From positions 1 through 32,275 of the forward strand of contig JAPPOO010000048.1 of NCBI GenBank assembly GCA_028817875.1: a stretch of DNA of 32,275 nt. The letters are read 5' to 3'. The translations under genes and the position numbers were made by a program. The stretch's first letter is position 1; every line of letters starts with the position of its first letter. The notes beneath the pieces were generated by a model. The model was not told the DNA's origin. It ran no database searches and saw nothing but the letters and a program-made list of their open reading frames with translations. Positions 10,511 to 31,779 of this stretch are shown here, piece by piece. This stretch comes from Alphaproteobacteria bacterium (lineage in GTDB: Bacteria; Pseudomonadota; Alphaproteobacteria; UBA2136; JAPPOO01).

Positions 10511-11958
10511 CCGACGATACAAAACAGCCTAAACCTGTCACAAACGAAATAGCCTCCGTTAAGTCTGATCCTGAATACGCTTTTGCTTTTATGGGGCGAT
10601 TGACCTCTGCCGATTCTACTTTGGCTACCCGTGGCAACGGTAAAGGCTACGCAATCTACGATGATATTGAACGGGATGCCCACGCCCAAGCGGTTCTGCA
10701 AAAGCGGAAGATGGCTTTGGTTTCTTACCCATGGGAACTCACCGCGGCGAGCGACTCAGCTGAAGACAAACGGGCCCGCGACCTCGTGGAAGACCAGCTC
10801 CTTGCAATGGACTTTAACCAGATCTGTTTAAATACCTTGGACGGTTTGCTTAAAGGCTTTTCCGTTGGTGAAGTTATGTGGAAGAATATCAACGGTACCT
10901 TCACGGTTACGGATATTAAATCCCGTGACCCAAATCGTTTTGTGTTTGACCTAGACTCCAAGCTTCGTATCAAAACAATTGAGAATATGTTTGATGGTGA
11001 GGACTTGCCTGACCGTAAGTTTATCGTCCATTCGTTTAATTCAAAGTACGAAAACCCCTACGGCTGCGGCTTGGGCAGCATCCTGTTTTGGCCAGTGTTT
11101 TTTAAACGGAATGGTATTAAGTTTTGGCTTACTTTTGCTGATAAGTTTGGTAATCCCACGGCTATTGGTAAGTATCCTACATCAGCGAGCCCAGAGGAAC
11201 GCCGCACTTTGGAAGATGCCCTCGCAGCTCTGTCCAATCAGACAGGCATTACCATGCCTGAAGGCATGATGCTTGAGTTTATTGAGGCTAAGCGTAGCGG
11301 CACGGTTCAGACCTACGAAAGCCTCTGCAACTATATGGACAAGCAGATATCCCTTGCGGTATTGGGTGAAACGCTGTCCACAGATATTGGCAGCAGCGGC
11401 AGCCGCGCTGCCAGTGAAACCCATAACGATGTGCGGTTAGAGCTGACTCAAGGGGATGGTAACCTGCTTGCCGGTACCTTTAACAATTCCTTTATCAAGT
11501 GGGTTACTGAGGTGAACCTCCCTCACGCAACCCCACCTATTTTGAGCTGGGATATTACCGAGCAAGAAGACTTGAATGCCAGAGCAGAGCGAGACACTAA
11601 AGTTTATGGTATGGGCTTTAAGCCGTCTGTAGAATATATCCAACGTTACTACGGTGAAGAATGGACAGAAGATACAAAACGCCTGACAACTCCACAGTCT
11701 GCGGCTTTTGCCGAAGCTGTCAAAGAAACAACCGACCTGAAGCTTGCTAATCGGCTACTGGATGATACCGCTCAAAATGTTGACAAGCTGATTGACCCGA
11801 TTCAGCAGCTACTTAATAGGGCTCATTCTTTAGAGGATTTTCAGGAAGGGCTCCTCAACCTTTATGCTGAGCTACCTGTTGATGAACTTGCTGACAAAAT
11901 AGCCGATGCCATGCAAGTGGCTGAACTCGCCGGACGGTTTGAATTTGATGACAAGTGA
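10507..11958 (+). CDS. Portal protein (Mu gp29-like, DUF935)
   Basis: This 483-residue protein is of the DUF935 portal family, forming the dodecameric ring through which DNA enters and leaves the head. Typical segments include ILFWPVFFKRNGIKFWLTFADKFG-like sequence around residue 195-218 and SLAVLGETLSTDIGSSGSRA around 280-300. The C-terminal 100 residues are helical, as in the portal crown. It starts on the terminase stop and overlaps the MuF start by 11 bases. Confidence 0.94.
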   Translation: MTDDTKQPKPVTNEIASVKSDPEYAFAFMGRLTSADSTLATRGNGKGYAIYDDIERDAHAQAVLQKRKMALVSYPWELTAASDSAEDKRARDLVEDQLLAMDFNQICLNTLDGLLKGFSVGEVMWKNINGTFTVTDIKSRDPNRFVFDLDSKLRIKTIENMFDGEDLPDRKFIVHSFNSKYENPYGCGLGSILFWPVFFKRNGIKFWLTFADKFGNPTAIGKYPTSASPEERRTLEDALAALSNQTGITMPEGMMLEFIEAKRSGTVQTYESLCNYMDKQISLAVLGETLSTDIGSSGSRAASETHNDVRLELTQGDGNLLAGTFNNSFIKWVTEVNLPHATPPILSWDITEQEDLNARAERDTKVYGMGFKPSVEYIQRYYGEEWTEDTKRLTTPQSAAFAEAVKETTDLKLANRLLDDTAQNVDKLIDPIQQLLNRAHSLEDFQEGLLNLYAELPVDELADKIADAMQVAELAGRFEFDDK

Positions 11959-13129
11959 GTACACCAACGTCCCTTTTAAGGAAGCTATTAGCTTTTTTAA
12001 GGATAAGGTACGTCTCCCCAGCAAGACTTGGCGTGATATTGAAAAGGGCATGCATAGCCGCGCCTTTGTTGTGGCAGGAGCTATGAAAGATGAATTGCTG
12101 GCCGATATGCAAAAAGCCCTCACGAAAGCCCTTGAGCAAGGGACAACGCTAGCAGAATTTCGCAAAGATTTTGACGGTATCGTCCAAAAGCGTGGTTGGA
12201 CTTATAAGGGCAAGAGAGGCTGGCGCACAGGTGTGATTTACCGTACCAACCTCTCAACCGCCTACCAAGCTGGACGTTACAAACAGATGCTTGATCCCGA
12301 TGTGGTTAAAGCTCGACCTTACTTACAATACATCCATGGTGATAGCTCCGATCCACGCCCTCAGCACCTTGCTTGGGATGGTTTGGTTTTGCGTCACGAT
12401 GATCCGTTTTGGAATACCCACCGCCCCAAAAACGGTTGGGGATGCTCCTGCTCGGTACGATCCCTCTCTGCAGGTGATCTAAAACGTATGGGCAAAAGCG
12501 AGCCTGATGCAGCTCCGCCTATTGAGATTGATCCAACAACAAATCGTCCGAAAGGTATTGATGAAGGATGGGACTATGACCCTGCCTTCACAGCATGGGG
12601 TAAGCCGCTTGCCGACAAGGCCATGTCTACTTGGCGAGCTGAGGGGGCTCATGCGTGGGCACTTCTTACAACTGGTACATGGCGTAACTTTAACCGCCCT
12701 GCTCGTATCAGCGTTGACAAGGCCAAAGCCAAGCTTGCCAAGCCTGTTCAAACAAAAGAGCAAGCCCGCACGCTTCTACAAAAAACGCTTAAAGCCGATG
12801 AGAAAGTCTTTACTCTACCTGACGGGAGTAAGATTTTGGTCAATGCCGACTCTCTGCTTGACCACATTGATTTAAACCGTGCCCACTTTTTACCGCTTTT
12901 GCCTGAGCTATTGGAACAGCCTTTTGAAGTTTGGCTAACCTTTCAGCAGCACAAAGGCACCGGACAAATCCAACTACGGAAACGCCTGATTAAGGCTATT
13001 AAATTAGACAAAGAACGGTTTTTGATTTTATCCGCCCAAGCCCGTAACGGCATCTTTGAGGCTTGGACAATTATTCCGACACGGGATTTGAGGTACGGAC
13101 AACACCTACGGGTTGGCACATTATTGTGA
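11948..13129 (+). CDS. F: MuF-like minor head protein fused to a PBECR2-type nuclease domain
   Basis: This 393-residue protein has two parts. Residues about 40-175 form the MuF head-morphogenesis domain (VIYRTNLSTAYQAGR, HLAWDGLVL and the cysteine-bearing KNGWGCSCSVRSL). Residues about 285-393 match the phage BECR-fold nuclease type (PBECR2) often fused to MuF (LPLLPELLEQPFEVWLTF, LSAQARNGIFEAWTIIPT, ending RVGTLL). MuF proteins enter the head, so the toxin-like domain could be injected with the DNA. I prefer ATG at 11948 over the in-frame ATG at 11906, which would overlap the portal gene by 53 bases. ParDE follows downstream. Confidence 0.85.
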   Translation: MTSEYTNVPFKEAISFFKDKVRLPSKTWRDIEKGMHSRAFVVAGAMKDELLADMQKALTKALEQGTTLAEFRKDFDGIVQKRGWTYKGKRGWRTGVIYRTNLSTAYQAGRYKQMLDPDVVKARPYLQYIHGDSSDPRPQHLAWDGLVLRHDDPFWNTHRPKNGWGCSCSVRSLSAGDLKRMGKSEPDAAPPIEIDPTTNRPKGIDEGWDYDPAFTAWGKPLADKAMSTWRAEGAHAWALLTTGTWRNFNRPARISVDKAKAKLAKPVQTKEQARTLLQKTLKADEKVFTLPDGSKILVNADSLLDHIDLNRAHFLPLLPELLEQPFEVWLTFQQHKGTGQIQLRKRLIKAIKLDKERFLILSAQARNGIFEAWTIIPTRDLRYGQHLRVGTLL

Positions 13130-18853: not shown

Positions 18854-19032
18854 CACTCTTTGTGCGCCCTGCCCGCAAAAAACTGAAAGTCCGTAATCCG
18901 GAAACAGGTCAACACCTTCCTGCTGAAGGCATGCATGTGACGCAATCCACCTATTGGCTACGCCGGATTAAAGACGGTGACGTCCTGACTACCCAAGTAA
19001 AAGAATCAACCAACAAAAAGGCTAAGTCATGA
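18850..19032 (+). CDS. Mu gp38-like small protein (DUF2635)
   Basis: This 60-residue basic protein begins MTLFVRPARKKLKVRNPETG and contains LPAEGMHVTQSTYWLRRIKD, the DUF2635 signature. It always lies just before the sheath gene in Mu-like phages. The function is unknown, probably structural in the tail. It overlaps both neighbours by four bases. Confidence 0.9.
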   Translation: MTLFVRPARKKLKVRNPETGQHLPAEGMHVTQSTYWLRRIKDGDVLTTQVKESTNKKAKS

Positions 19033-20501
19033 GCATTTCGTTTAATGATATCCCGACCACCAATTTAACACCGGGCGTTTATATTGAGTTTGATAATTCC
19101 AAGGCTGTGGGCCTGTTAAAAGCCATCCACCGTGTATTGGTTATTGGCCAACGGTTAACGACAGGTACCATTGCGGAAGGTGTTCCTACCCGTATTACTT
19201 CCGCAACTCAAGCGAAGGAATACTTCGGCGAAGGCTCCATGTTGGCCAGTATGCTCGCCACCTATTTTGATAATAACGACCAACACGAAACTTGGGCCAT
19301 TGCGCTTGATGATAATGGCGCAGGCGTTGCTGCAACCGGTGACTTAACGGTATCCGGCACAACCACCGCCTCCGGTACTTTAAACCTCTACATTGCAGGA
19401 CAACGAGTGCAAGTGGGTGTGACAGCAGGGCAAAGCCTGAGCACCGTTGCTTCCAATATTGTTGCTGCTGTTACCGCCGATGCCTCTCTACCCGTCACGG
19501 CGGCTGTGAACGGAGGTACTCCAGAGCAAGTTGACTTTACGGCCAAACATAAAGGCGTACTAGGTAATAACATCGACCTTCGCCTTAACTACCAATCTGG
19601 AGAAGCTTTACCTACTGGCTTAGGCATTGCTATCAACGCTATGTCCGGCGGTACAGCCAACCCCGATATAACCACGGCAATAACAGCCATGGCCGATGTA
19701 CAGTACCACTCTGTTATTCAACCTTACACGGATGCTTCCAACTTGAGTGCCCTGCACAGCGAACTTGATGACCGCTTTGGCCCAATGGTAATGCAAGAAG
19801 GCTCGGTTTATACCGCCGCTATCGGCTCAGTTGCCGAGCAGGGAACCCTTGGCGATAGCCTGAATAGCCAACACATTAGCATTATGGGGGCAGGAAAAAG
19901 CCCTACCGCACCTTGGAACTGGGCTGCAGCTTTTGGCGGTATTGTCTCCTACCACGGTGATATCGACCCTGCCCGCCCTTTCCAAACATTGGTTATGGCA
20001 GGTGTTTTACCGCCAGCAGAATCTGACCGATTCACGCGAACAGAGCGAAATCAAACCCTTGCCGACGGTATTGCAACCTTTACGGTATCAGCCAACGGCG
20101 AGTGCATGATTGAGCGGGCCGTTACAACTTACAAAACCAATGCAAGTGGCGCCCCTGACCCATCCTACAGAGATGTTAACACACTGCTGACTTTGTTTTT
20201 CTTAAGGTTTTCACTCAGAGCCAGAATCTCTCAAAAATTCCCACGCTACAAGCTGGCCAAGGATGGAACTCGCTACGGAGACGGACAAGATACTGTCACG
20301 CCATCAGTCGCTCGCTCTGAAATTATCGCCCTGTTTAAACAGTGGGAAACCATTGGGCTGGTTGAAGACATAAAGCAATTCAAAAAAGACTTGATTGTAA
20401 AAATTAATGATGCTGACCCGAATCGCTTGGATGTGCGCATTTCACCGAATGTTGTGAACCAGCTCCGCGTGTTTGCTGGACAAGTGCAATTTAAACTGTA
20501 A
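19029..20501 (+). CDS. L: Contractile tail sheath protein (Mu gpL-like)
   Basis: This 490-residue protein is the sheath subunit. It starts ISFNDIPTTNLTPGVYIEFD, typical of Mu-type sheaths. It has a variable beta domain (about residues 95-200, rich in Thr, Ala and Gly) and a conserved C-terminal domain (YRDVNTLLTLFFLRFSLRAR, then RLDVRISPNVVNQLRVFAGQ) that forms the contractile mesh. Its presence shows a myovirus-type tail. The tube gene follows after 15 bases. Confidence 0.95.
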   Translation: MSISFNDIPTTNLTPGVYIEFDNSKAVGLLKAIHRVLVIGQRLTTGTIAEGVPTRITSATQAKEYFGEGSMLASMLATYFDNNDQHETWAIALDDNGAGVAATGDLTVSGTTTASGTLNLYIAGQRVQVGVTAGQSLSTVASNIVAAVTADASLPVTAAVNGGTPEQVDFTAKHKGVLGNNIDLRLNYQSGEALPTGLGIAINAMSGGTANPDITTAITAMADVQYHSVIQPYTDASNLSALHSELDDRFGPMVMQEGSVYTAAIGSVAEQGTLGDSLNSQHISIMGAGKSPTAPWNWAAAFGGIVSYHGDIDPARPFQTLVMAGVLPPAESDRFTRTERNQTLADGIATFTVSANGECMIERAVTTYKTNASGAPDPSYRDVNTLLTLFFLRFSLRARISQKFPRYKLAKDGTRYGDGQDTVTPSVARSEIIALFKQWETIGLVEDIKQFKKDLIVKINDADPNRLDVRISPNVVNQLRVFAGQVQFKL

Positions 20502-20516
20502 AGGAGAATAGCCCCT

Positions 20517-20879
20517 ATGGAACCACTTTTTGGCATTGCCTACATTACCGCTGACGGAGAGCTTTTAAAATCCATGCCCGGCGCCCGGCTTACTTTGGGT
20601 GGCAAAAAACGTAGTGCTGTTGTTGGGCACTCCCTCTACGGATTTTCATCAAGCTTTGAGCCTGCCCGACTAGAATTTGAAATTACTGTCGCTAAAGAAG
20701 AAACTATCAATAAATTAAAAGAAGCTGTTGATCAAACGGTTAAGTTTGAAGGTGATAATGGCACAGCTTGGGTCATTGCGAACGCTTTTGTCGAAAACAC
20801 TGGAGACATCTCCCACAGCGAGGAAAACACGACAGCTTCCTTCATATTCGTAGGTGATCCAGCAGAGTCTTTAACGTAG
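20517..20879 (+). CDS. M: Tail tube protein (Mu gpM-like)
   Basis: This 120-residue beta-rich protein fits the Mu-type tube family: FGIAYITADGELLKSMPGAR, the lysine-rich loop LGGKKRSAVVGHSLYG and the ending TASFIFVGDPAESL. It stacks as hexameric rings inside the sheath. A GGAGA ribosome site precedes the ATG. The adjacent sheath gene supports the call. Confidence 0.92.
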   Translation: MEPLFGIAYITADGELLKSMPGARLTLGGKKRSAVVGHSLYGFSSSFEPARLEFEITVAKEETINKLKEAVDQTVKFEGDNGTAWVIANAFVENTGDISHSEENTTASFIFVGDPAESLT

Positions 20880-20892
20880 GGAGAAAAACAAA

Positions 20893-21252
20893 ATGGCTGA
20901 ACATACTGTAGAGCTTCAGGATGGGATTAAGGTTGGCGGGAGCACCGTCAAAACCGTCAGCATTAAGCAACTTACTGCCGGAGATATTTTCAGTGCTAGT
21001 GCCGAAAGCGAAGTACCTGTACCGAAACTCAACGGAGAGCTTGAGCTTGTTGTGTCTCCTACTGAAGTTGGGAAGCGGATGCTTTGCGCCGCTGTTGTTA
21101 AAGTTGGTGATATACCGGGAAAAATGGCGGTTTCACAGTTGGAAACCCTTTCTTTGTCGGACTTCCAAACCCTACAAACAGCAGTGGACAAGCTTAACGA
21201 TACCAACCCTAAAGACCTTGAAAAACGGGGGCGAGATCATCCAGCTGAATAA
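20893..21252 (+). CDS. Tail assembly chaperone, short form (Mu gp41-like)
   Basis: This 119-residue protein belongs to the gp41/E-type tail assembly chaperones that coat the tape measure during tail assembly. It has the beta-rich start ELQDGIKVGGSTVKTVSIKQ and a helical core (TEVGKRMLCAAVVKVGDI, LSLSDFQTLQTAVDKLND). In the last codons lies GGGGGCGA (21227-21234), a recoding site that would fuse it to the overlapping downstream frame. Unshifted ribosomes stop at 21252. Confidence 0.88.
   Translation: MAEHTVELQDGIKVGGSTVKTVSIKQLTAGDIFSASAESEVPVPKLNGELELVVSPTEVGKRMLCAAVVKVGDIPGKMAVSQLETLSLSDFQTLQTAVDKLNDTNPKDLEKRGRDHPAE
21227..21234 (+). promoter_or_regulatory. Programmed frameshift site in the tail chaperone gene
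   Basis: The sequence GGGGGCGA is read as CGG-GGG-CGA. Slipping back two bases lets the glycine tRNA re-pair with GGG and continue as GGC-GAG-ATC in the overlapping frame. The two frames differ by +1 or −2. Mu itself has been reported to use a −2 shift at the same kind of sequence, so −2 is the likely mechanism here. Confidence 0.8.
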
Positions 21253-21367
21253 CCGCCTAGAGGATAACCTCCTCCTTTTAGCTGGAAGAACAGGCTGGAC
21301 AAAACAAGAAATTGAGGGGCTGACAGTAGCCAAGTTAAACACTTACGCAAGAAAGATGCAGTTTTAA
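21230..21367 (+). CDS. Frameshifted C-terminal extension of the tail chaperone (Mu gp42-frame)
   Basis: This 45-codon segment has no ribosome site or good start of its own. It reads GEIIQLNNRLEDNLLLLAGR, then TGWTKQEIEGLTVAKLNTYA, the helical extension seen on the long form of tail chaperones. Joined by the −2 shift it makes a protein of about 158 residues. The long form usually contacts both tube and tape measure. The tape measure gene starts 2 bases after its stop. Confidence 0.8.
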   Translation, partial: GEIIQLNNRLEDNLLLLAGRTGWTKQEIEGLTVAKLNTYARKMQF

Positions 21368-21369
21368 AC

Positions 21370-22740
21370 ATGACGAATTTTACTAACTCCATTGTTATGA
21401 AATTTGTAGATATGGCCAGCCGTCCTGTAGGGCGTCTGGGTAATTCTATCCGCCGATTTTCGAATAACTCCACACGTGATCTTGCTAAGGTAGGTAAACA
21501 GGCAAAAAGAACCAGTAGTTTGATGAATGAGCTTGGCAAGGTAGCTGGAGGAATTAGTGCTCTTGACCTTGCCCGTCGTAGTATCGGTTCAGCTATGAGT
21601 TCAGAGGCTGAGTTTGAGCGTTTAGCTATTAATGCCAATATGACTACTGAAGAAATTCAGGAAGTCAAACGCCTCATTTATAAGCTTGCTCAAAGGTCTG
21701 ATATCCGCATTGACCCTACTTTTCTTCGTGAAGCCTTTGCTAAAGTTATCGAAAAAACTGGTGATAAAGCTTATGGCATCTCACAGCTAGAAAATATGGC
21801 CTTAGCTATTCAGGCAACCGGTTCATCTGGTTATGATATAGGGGCTACGGTGGCAGACCTTCAGAAATTTAATATCGCTACCAAAGAAGAAATTCTAGAG
21901 GCTCTCAATATTCTGGATGCCCAAGGTAAAATGGGTTCCCTTACAGCTGAAGAACTTGCAGCTGCAGCTGAAAAACTCTTTAGCTCTGCCGTAGCAGCAG
22001 GAGCAACAGGCATACAAGGCATTAAAGAAACAGGAGCCCTTGCTCAAACTGCGCGTATGGTCGTAGGAAGCGGCGATGAAGCTGTTACTTACCTTAATAG
22101 GATTCCTTCAGATTTCATACAAAATGCTGACCTGTTTAGGAAAGAAGGCATTGAAGTCTTTGATAAAGACGGAAAGCTACGCAACCAAGTTGAGCTCTTA
22201 AAAGAGGTTATTGTTAAGCTAGATGGAAGTATTCCCAGACTATCAGAACTATTCTCAGATACATCTCTCCAAGTTGTTAAAAAAATGGCAGGGGACTATA
22301 AGAGCGAGAAATACGAAGGCTTTTCTAACTTTGACAGGTTTCTTAATGTTCAGATTTCCGGAGATGAAATTGCGAAAAACAGCGCCCGCATGGCTGCGAC
22401 AGGATCAGCCAGAATGTTGAACATGCAAACATCTATGGGGAGACTTTTAGAGTTTGGCGGAAAGTACGCATTGATCCCTACTATAGAAGGGCTACTAGAC
22501 CTTCCAAAAGACGCTGTTATGAAGCCTTACAATTTTGCTAAAGATGTTGCGAGTGCCCCCGGAAATATATACCAAGCCGTTCAAGATTTAGTTACTGCCC
22601 TATCTCAAAAAGAACCTAATGAAGCTCACGTTACCGTTGAGTTTAAAAATTCTCCAGCTGGTACCCAAGTCTCTCAAATGAACGCTAGCAAAGGGTTAGA
22701 GCTTAATATCGACAATGGCCCAGTTATGGTGACGCCGTGA
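21370..22740 (+). CDS. Tail tape measure protein
   Basis: This 456-residue, mainly helical protein sets tail length. It has a basic N-terminus (FVDMASRPVGRLGNSIRRFS), a central tape-measure core with long helices (ISALDLARRSIGSAMSSEAE, FLREAFAKVIEKTGDKAYGI) and GATVADLQKFNIATKEEILE. It is short for a tape measure, implying a short tail. The DNA looks AT-richer than the sheath and baseplate genes, hinting at separate ancestry together with the accessory gene behind it. Position directly after the chaperone is diagnostic. Confidence 0.88.
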   Translation: MTNFTNSIVMKFVDMASRPVGRLGNSIRRFSNNSTRDLAKVGKQAKRTSSLMNELGKVAGGISALDLARRSIGSAMSSEAEFERLAINANMTTEEIQEVKRLIYKLAQRSDIRIDPTFLREAFAKVIEKTGDKAYGISQLENMALAIQATGSSGYDIGATVADLQKFNIATKEEILEALNILDAQGKMGSLTAEELAAAAEKLFSSAVAAGATGIQGIKETGALAQTARMVVGSGDEAVTYLNRIPSDFIQNADLFRKEGIEVFDKDGKLRNQVELLKEVIVKLDGSIPRLSELFSDTSLQVVKKMAGDYKSEKYEGFSNFDRFLNVQISGDEIAKNSARMAATGSARMLNMQTSMGRLLEFGGKYALIPTIEGLLDLPKDAVMKPYNFAKDVASAPGNIYQAVQDLVTALSQKEPNEAHVTVEFKNSPAGTQVSQMNASKGLELNIDNGPVMVTP

Positions 22741-30855: not shown

Positions 30856-30942
30856 GAGCTACTGAATTTACGGCCTTACAAGCCTTACACAGCGTGAACG
30901 GTGCCAACGTTAGTGGTGCTTAATAAATGCTGGAGAAAGAAT

Positions 30943-31779
30943 GTGACACAAAATGACCTTTTTGAGGGGATAGAGCTACTTAGCCGCGTAGAACCTTTAC
31001 AGGGAGCGGCTCCCTACTTGGGCGGTAAAAGAAACCTTGCCCAACGGTTGGTAACTCTTATTCAGGCCACGCCCCATAAACTATACGCTGAACCCTTTGT
31101 GGGTATGGGTGGTATCTTTTTTAAGCGTACTGCCCGCCCCAAAGTAGAAGTCATAAACGACTATAGCCGTGATGTTGCAAATTTCTTTCGTATTCTGCAG
31201 CGTCACCTAAAACCATTCCTAGAGGAAATGGAATGGATGGTTTACTCCCGCTCTGAATTTGAGCGTTTGAAAAGTGTTGATCCATCCGGCCTGACTGACC
31301 TTGAACGCGCGGCCCGCTTTTACTTTCTCCAGCGTAGCAGCTTTGGTGGGTGTGTTGGCAACCGTAGCTTTGGCGTAGACCGAGACGGCGGCGGACGCTT
31401 CAACATCTATAGCTTTAAAGAGTCTTTAAACGACCTTCATAAGCGTCTTTCAAAGGTGATTATTGAAAACCTTTCCTATAGCGATTTTATTACCAAGTAT
31501 AACTGCCCCGGTACCCTTTTCTACCTTGATCCACCGTATTGGGGGAACGAGAATGACTACGGCAAAAACCTGTTTAGCCGCACTGACTTTGAACAATTGG
31601 CGGAACAGCTACAAAGCGTTGAAGGGCATTTTATCCTATCGCTTAACGATTGTGAGGGTGTGCGAGAAACCTTTAAAATGTTTGATATGACCAGCGTAGA
31701 GACGGTTTACACCGTATCCGCCCAAGGCAGCCAAACCGTTAAAGAGGTTATTATTACAGGTGGTAAAAACTTAGTTTGA
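30943..31779 (+). CDS. DNA adenine N6-methyltransferase, D12 class (Dam-like)
   Basis: This 278-residue enzyme transfers a methyl group from S-adenosylmethionine to adenine N6. It contains the D12-class opening PYLGGKRNLAQRLVTLI (about 24-40), cofactor motif AEPFVGMGG (49-57) and catalytic DPPY (196-199). I chose GTG at 30943, with GGAG at 30932-30935; GTG 30901 lacks a ribosome site. It occupies the position of Mu's com-mom modification genes, so it probably protects phage DNA from restriction. The target sequence (GATC or other) cannot be told. Confidence 0.9.
   Translation: MTQNDLFEGIELLSRVEPLQGAAPYLGGKRNLAQRLVTLIQATPHKLYAEPFVGMGGIFFKRTARPKVEVINDYSRDVANFFRILQRHLKPFLEEMEWMVYSRSEFERLKSVDPSGLTDLERAARFYFLQRSSFGGCVGNRSFGVDRDGGGRFNIYSFKESLNDLHKRLSKVIIENLSYSDFITKYNCPGTLFYLDPPYWGNENDYGKNLFSRTDFEQLAEQLQSVEGHFILSLNDCEGVRETFKMFDMTSVETVYTVSAQGSQTVKEVIITGGKNLV

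What the first reader, a model, noticed from the sequence alone, without database searches (positions are those of the whole stretch)
21227..21367. Mu-type −2 frameshift site GGGGGCGA in the tail chaperone gene
The tail chaperone ends at 21252 in its own frame, while the adjacent frame from 21230 encodes a typical chaperone extension with no start of its own. The only place that joins them cleanly is GGGGGCGA, matching the site reported for the unusual −2 shift in Mu. Most tail chaperones use −1, so the rarer −2 type being kept in a distant relative is noteworthy.
Basis: partly seen in the sequence, partly recalled or inferred. Interest (0 to 1): 0.65.

Follow-up and report, generated by a model that had tools for sequence, protein, structure and literature searches.

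The report
Mu-type tail-gene frameshift site
A Mu-like prophage tail gene carries the same eight-base ribosome-slipping signal as phage Mu, and comparison of 123 related genes indicates that the ribosome slips two bases backward there to make a longer second protein for tail building: a known kind of signal, with its helper elements and natural variants newly mapped here.

Summary
Confirmed, and a known kind. The tail assembly chaperone (20893-21252) is a Mu gp41 homologue (PF23746, 89.5 bits). GGGGGCGA (21227-21234) is read CGG GGG CGA. The +1/-2 frame after it encodes a 45-codon extension matched by an HMM built without the window (E 1.3e-7), beginning exactly at 21230.

Among 123 distinct gp41 loci, 84 besides the window carry the octamer at this position and phase; background expectation is 0.001. 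All 94 five-base-type sites have xGG before the Gly codon, whether it encodes Arg, Gly or Trp. The Gly codon is GGG or GGA, never GGY. That fits -2 re-pairing better than +1. For Mu itself, GenBank records a verified -2 shift (PMID 15469818).

New here: the family shares a stem-loop starting 12 nt after the P codon begins (window 21241-21285) and usually an upstream Shine-Dalgarno-like element, which the window and Mu lack. Thirteen relatives reach the homologous extension by -1; one Photorhabdus-type clade has only four Gs. Direction looks labile while fusion is conserved.

The parts
20893..21252 (+). Tail assembly chaperone, short form (gp41 homologue, 119 aa)
   Evidence: PF23746 Gp41_Mu 89.5 bits, cut-off 27; PF10109 over cut-off; phrog_508
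21226..21234 (+). Slip site CGG GGG CGA (zero frame); octamer GGGGGCGA at 21227-21234; proposed P-site codon GGG 21229-21231, A-site CGA 21232-21234
   Evidence: Sequence; conserved in phase in 84 further loci
21230..21367 (+). Frameshift extension read from GGC in the +1/-2 frame, 45 codons plus stop TAA
   Evidence: Leave-one-out extension HMM i-Evalue 1.3e-7 starting at 21230; translation
21241..21285 (+). Predicted stem-loop: 9-bp stem 21241-21249/21277-21285 with an inner hairpin 21260-21264/21270-21274; begins 6 nt after the A-site codon. A competing pairing of the same 5' arm with about 21293-21299 is also predicted
   Evidence: z -2.57 for 21235-21300; 0.6% of synonymous versions fold as well; base pairs
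21370..22740 (+). Tape measure protein gene, the expected downstream neighbour
   Evidence: PF10145 at cut-off
20517..20879 (+). Tail tube protein gene, the expected upstream neighbour
   Evidence: PF10618, 80.7 bits

Best explanation
Programmed -2 ribosomal frameshifting in the tail assembly chaperone gene of a Mu-like prophage. Most ribosomes read CGG GGG CGA and stop at 21252, giving a 119-aa chaperone. A minority pause with tRNA-Gly on GGG (21229-21231) in the P site, the poorly decoded CGA codon waiting in the A site and a stem-loop starting six nucleotides beyond it. The tRNA slips back two bases onto the overlapping GGG (21227-21229), the next codon becomes GGC (21230), and translation continues for 45 codons to give a 158-aa fusion. 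By analogy with lambda gpG/gpGT, the short form coats the tape measure protein and the fusion recruits tail tube subunits. Shown here: anatomy, homology, conservation, the nucleotide-level constraint on the Gs, and the predicted stem. Inferred: that shifting occurs in this phage, that it is -2 rather than +1, its efficiency, and the role of the fusion.
For: Gp41_Mu family membership. Same octamer and phase in Mu, D108, SfMu, Vibrio, Shewanella, Klebsiella and Alteromonadaceae phages and in 84 loci besides the window, expectation 0.001. All 94 five-base-type sites have xGG before the Gly codon although it is CGG 86, AGG 6, TGG 1, GGG 1; xGG is 24% of Arg codons elsewhere in these genes, about 1e-27 for 43 clusters taken as independent. 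The Gly codon is GGG 91 / GGA 3, never GGY. Three loci read CGG GGA GAG, where only -2 lets tRNA-Gly re-pair (GGA to GGG). Homologues using -1 need one upstream G and have NNG GGR. Extension homology. Downstream stem. Mu itself is annotated 'verified -2 translational frameshift in PMID 15469818'. The host draft genome shows tRNA-Gly UCC and GCC and tRNA-Arg ACG, CCG, UCU, so GGG before and after the slip would be read by the same tRNA.
Against: No protein or reporter data for this phage; -2 and +1 enter the same frame and differ by one glycine. The window lacks the upstream Shine-Dalgarno-like element found in most relatives (best -0.9 kcal/mol). The conserved A of CGA is also the second base of the extension's Glu/Asp codon, so its role in pausing is confounded. 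Mu's own downstream stem is not unusually stable (z about 0). Only 28 tRNA genes were found in the incomplete host draft.
Confidence: 0.85

Rival explanations
1. Programmed +1 frameshifting at the same place: tRNA-Gly on GGG moves forward onto GGC while the slow CGA codon waits, giving a 157-aa fusion with one glycine fewer.
For: Same frame as -2; CGA in the A site is a plausible slow codon; the four-G clade (GAG GGG CGA TAG, 14 distinct loci) keeps GGGC but not five Gs.
Against: Does not need the two Gs before the Gly codon, which are invariant in 94 of 94 five-base-type sites; at CGG GGA GAG a +1 slip would pair tRNA-Gly with GAG; the SD-like spacing and stem resemble backward-shift cassettes and are shared with -1 relatives; Mu is annotated as verified -2.
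Confidence: 0.1
2. RNA polymerase slippage on the G run makes a mixed mRNA pool, and normal translation of the slipped mRNA gives the fusion.
For: A homopolymer run is at the junction; L086 has one G fewer and is fused in frame.
Against: The run is only five Gs; variants such as CGGGGAGAG break the run; a stem-loop and an SD-like element at fixed distances act on ribosomes.
Confidence: 0.02
3. No fusion is made; the extension frame is a remnant, or a separate gene started internally.
For: No direct product data; the frame has an upstream ATG at 20921.
Against: The extension is conserved over 74 distinct sequences, abuts the site exactly, has no start codon at its beginning, and homologues in 13 loci move it to the -1 frame together with a -1-type site.
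Confidence: 0.03

Closest known systems
Phage Mu gp41 and its frameshift product, -2 programmed frameshift (Xu, Hendrix and Duda 2004, PMID 15469818, cited through PMC5009743 and the GenBank note in AF083977)
   Same: Homologous gene, same position between tail tube and tape measure, identical CGGGGGCGA in the same phase, homologous extension in the same frame
   Different: About 31% protein identity; window extension 45 codons against 51; the window has a stronger predicted downstream stem; direction not measured in the window
Lambda gpG/gpGT -1 frameshift, and -1 users inside the gp41 family (e.g. L237 CGG GGA AAG, L223 CGG GGA AAA)
   Same: Same operon logic: short chaperone and frameshift-extended chaperone before the tape measure; gp41-family -1 users have a homologous extension and a stem at similar spacing
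   Different: They use one upstream G with GGR and a -1 shift; the window's -1 frame is closed
E. coli dnaX -1 cassette (internal Shine-Dalgarno, slip site, stem-loop)
   Same: Three-part layout is seen in most of the gp41 family at similar spacings
   Different: Shift is -2; the window and Mu lack the Shine-Dalgarno-like part; dnaX features are from the literature, not retested here

Membership tests
Mu gp41 tail assembly chaperone (PF23746) | Profile match over the curated cut-off | tested here: met
   89.5 bits against cut-off 27, profile 1-107 of 107
Mu gp41 tail assembly chaperone (PF23746) | Gene order sheath, tube, chaperone, tape measure | tested here: met
   Sheath 19029-20501, tube 20517-20879, chaperone, tape measure 21370-22740
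Mu-type -2 programmed frameshift | xGG GGG CGA at the end of the conserved gp41 domain, in that phase | tested here: met
Mu-type -2 programmed frameshift | Homologous extension in the +1/-2 frame | tested here: met
   Leave-one-out HMM E 1.3e-7, starts at 21230
Mu-type -2 programmed frameshift | Fusion protein whose junction peptide shows -2 | not testable with these tools
   Needs mass spectrometry; expected tryptic peptide GGEIIQLNNR (-2) against GEIIQLNNR (+1)
Lambda-type -1 frameshift | X XXY YYZ heptamer and open -1 frame | tested here: not met
   -1 frame open only around the stop, 21249-21260; no heptamer at the site
dnaX-like three-part cassette | Stem-loop a few nucleotides downstream of the slip site | tested here: met
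   Predicted 9-bp stem at 21241, 6 nt after the A-site codon, z -2.57; prediction only
dnaX-like three-part cassette | Internal Shine-Dalgarno-like element about 10-18 nt upstream | tested here: not met
   Best anti-SD energy -0.9 kcal/mol upstream of the window site; present in most relatives

The most novel reading that the evidence does not exclude
The gp41 family uses one conserved cassette (upstream SD-like element, G-run slip site, stem-loop at a fixed distance) in which the number of Gs before the Gly codon and a 1-nt change at the site set the direction: two Gs give -2, one G with GGA AAR gives -1, and perhaps GAG GGG CGA UAG gives +1, all feeding the same homologous extension. It would be a natural series for asking what sets the size and direction of a ribosomal slip.
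Probability: 0.45. Interest if true: 0.6.

Novelty: new member of a known kind. Interest (0 to 1): 0.42.

Why it matters
Natural -2 frameshifting has few documented cases; the 2016 review (PMC5009743) names phage Mu, arteriviruses and Trichomonas vaginalis virus 1. PRFect, a 2024 predictor, leaves -2 out of its categories (PMC10885494). This analysis turns the single Mu example into a family of 94 five-base-type sites with sequence rules, a mapped stem-loop and SD-like element, and close relatives that do the same job by -1 or have a four-G site. Pairs such as L219 and L237, which share flanking sequence but differ by one nucleotide in length at the site and use different frames, make the choice of slip size directly testable in E. 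coli reporters.

Tried and rejected
Alignment A1 was too diverse to seed collection scans, so closer subsets and the tail sheath were used. The window chaperone itself found no relatives in viral contigs. Rfam found nothing in the window. The RNAalifold consensus over mixed -1/-2 relatives gave no structure because MAFFT put gaps into the short sequences. The Photorhabdus-type clade folded as one 12-bp hairpin, but only one pair had a compensatory change, so covariation support for the stem is weak and it rests on shuffle and synonymous-codon tests. One origin for the nested -1 users was not rejected (AU p = 0.078), so repeated switching is suggested by the tree, not proven. Mu's own downstream region showed no unusual stability. 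An independent extension gene and transcriptional slippage were considered and rejected (see rivals). Xu 2004 and Baranov 2006 are not held in the library, so whether they already described stimulators in Mu could not be checked; searches of held papers found none.

Full report
What is there. The window is a 32,275-base contig holding a largely complete Mu-like prophage: Mu transposase, an AAA ATPase next to it, GemA, Mor, gp27, terminase, Mu portal, F-like protein, gp36, gp37, sheath, tube, chaperone, tape measure, DNA circularisation protein, gp44 to gp48 relatives. The chaperone, 20893-21252, matches the Pfam family Gp41_Mu with 89.5 bits (cut-off 27). It ends ...GAA AAA CGG GGG CGA GAT CAT CCA GCT GAA TAA. 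GGGGGCGA is 21227-21234. The +1/-2 frame runs to TAA at 21365-21367, just before the tape-measure ATG at 21370; the -1 frame is closed.

The extension frame is open from 20912 and contains an ATG at 20921, so stop codons do not single out the junction. Homology does: an HMM of relatives' extensions built without the window finds this frame with a best-domain E of 1.3e-7 among 532 window ORFs, next best 0.01, and the alignment starts at codon 21230. The octamer alone is expected 0.56 times in this window by chance; its significance comes from position and conservation. The predicted junction EKRGGEII is right for -2. The fusion would be 158 aa (-2) or 157 aa (+1), distinguished by tryptic peptides GGEIIQLNNR and GEIIQLNNR.

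Survey. Relatives were collected without using the slip site, by scanning viral, genome and phage collections with the chaperone core or the tail sheath. They give 123 distinct full-length gp41 loci. In 108 the homologous extension lies in the +1/-2 frame and in 13 in the -1 frame; one (L086) is fused in frame and one (L243) is interrupted. Of the 108, 94 have a five-base-type site and 14 belong to a four-G clade. GGGGGCGA sits at the site in 84 loci besides the window, against 6 occurrences elsewhere in 513 kb, an expectation of 0.001 at a fixed position. Named hosts of sheath-scan loci with the site include Halothiobacillus, Roseospirillum, Desulfobulbaceae, Vibrio, Photobacterium, Rheinheimera, Aeromonas and Marinomonas.

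Why -2 rather than +1. Both enter the same frame, and the window alone cannot decide. Natural variation helps. In the 94 five-base-type sites the codon before Gly is CGG 86, AGG 6, TGG 1, GGG 1: the amino acid changes, the two Gs never do. xGG is 24% of Arg codons elsewhere in these genes, so 43 clusters (60% identity) all having it has probability near 1e-27 if they are treated as independent. One caution: the site finder for this class looked for GG or the known four-G form before the Gly codon, but it left only the in-frame fusion L086 and the -1-frame locus L105 without a site, so no +1/-2 locus was dropped for lacking GG. The Gly codon is GGG 91 or GGA 3, never GGC or GGT. A -2 slip of tRNA-Gly onto GGG needs exactly this; a +1 slip does not. 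The three CGG GGA GAG sites can re-pair at -2 (GGA to GGG) but not at +1 (GAG). The -1 homologues have NNG GGA AAR, NNG GGA AAC or NNG GGG GAA: one upstream G, as -1 needs (the site of L105 was not located by this rule). For Mu the GenBank record AF083977 carries 'verified -2 translational frameshift in PMID 15469818', and a review lists Mu among -2 cases (PMC5009743). I take -2 in the window as inferred, about 0.85.

Helper elements. Base-pairing probability rises sharply at +12 from the start of the Gly codon, six nucleotides beyond the A-site codon, in the -2, -1 and four-G classes. Mean z of the 50 nt downstream is about -1.3, against -0.06 to -0.46 at control positions, and synonymous-codon randomisation gives -1.62 (se 0.21) against about -0.5. 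In the window the predicted stem is 21241-21249/21277-21285. The 66-nt region has z -2.57 and 0.6% of synonymous versions of a 54-nt stretch fold as well; a longer alternative pairing of the same 5' arm with bases near 21293-21299 competes. Most relatives also carry a Shine-Dalgarno-like stretch about 10-18 nt upstream (mean best anti-SD energy -6.5 kcal/mol against -2.8 and -1.2 further upstream; positional peak; synonymous z -1.30, se 0.16, controls 0.06). The window and Mu lack it. The layout resembles dnaX as described in the literature.

Direction seems labile. On the chaperone tree a deep -1 clade is separate, and six further -1 users lie among -2 users; the best tree needs five changes there, but a single origin is not rejected (AU p 0.078). 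Related sites show the step directly: L219 (CGG GGG CGC GATCATGCGGCA) and L237 (CGG GGA AAG T GATCATGCGGCA) share the following DNA with a one-base offset (+6 against +7), as do L217 and L225. Recombination near the site could also contribute and was not tested.

Four-G clade. Photorhabdus, Xenorhabdus and Leminorella prophages, plus one contig with AAG, have GAG GGG CGA TAG and a 12-13 bp hairpin. A -2 slip would put tRNA-Gly on AGG, a +1 slip on GGC. I lean to +1 there but cannot decide.

Comparison with the known. The window is a member of the Mu gp41 family with a Mu-type site; every tested defining feature is met, and the one left open is direct proof of the junction. It is not a lambda-type -1 site. 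The Shine-Dalgarno part of a dnaX-like cassette was tested and is absent in the window. What may be new is at family level: sequence rules, stem, SD-like element and -1/-2 exchange. I could not check whether the 2004 and 2006 papers already reported stimulators in Mu.

Noticed in passing
window 11906-13126: The Mu F-like head protein carries a C-terminal PBECR2 nuclease-like domain (74.7 bits).
   Followed up: no
window 30901-31776: D12-class adenine methyltransferase gene at the right end of the prophage contig.
   Followed up: no
L086 (Marinomonas rhodophyticola), codons CAG CGG GGC GAT: One G fewer than in relatives, so chaperone and extension are fused in frame; either a phage that makes only the long form or a homopolymer sequencing error.
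   Followed up: partly
L243 near 1900: GGGGGCGA is present but the extension has an in-frame TGA where relatives have a Trp codon (RTG* against RTGW): mutation, sequencing error or TGA read as Trp.
   Followed up: no
L087, L089, L090, L102, L192, L274 and near copies: Four-G clade GAG/AAG GGG CGA TAG with a long hairpin starting at about +12; candidate +1 site inside a -2 family.
   Followed up: partly
Loci from the sheath scans without a gp41 hit, e.g. L047, L050, L127: Many Mu-type sheath loci show no match to this gp41 profile downstream, suggesting a different tail chaperone type; their own frameshift sites were not analysed.
   Followed up: no
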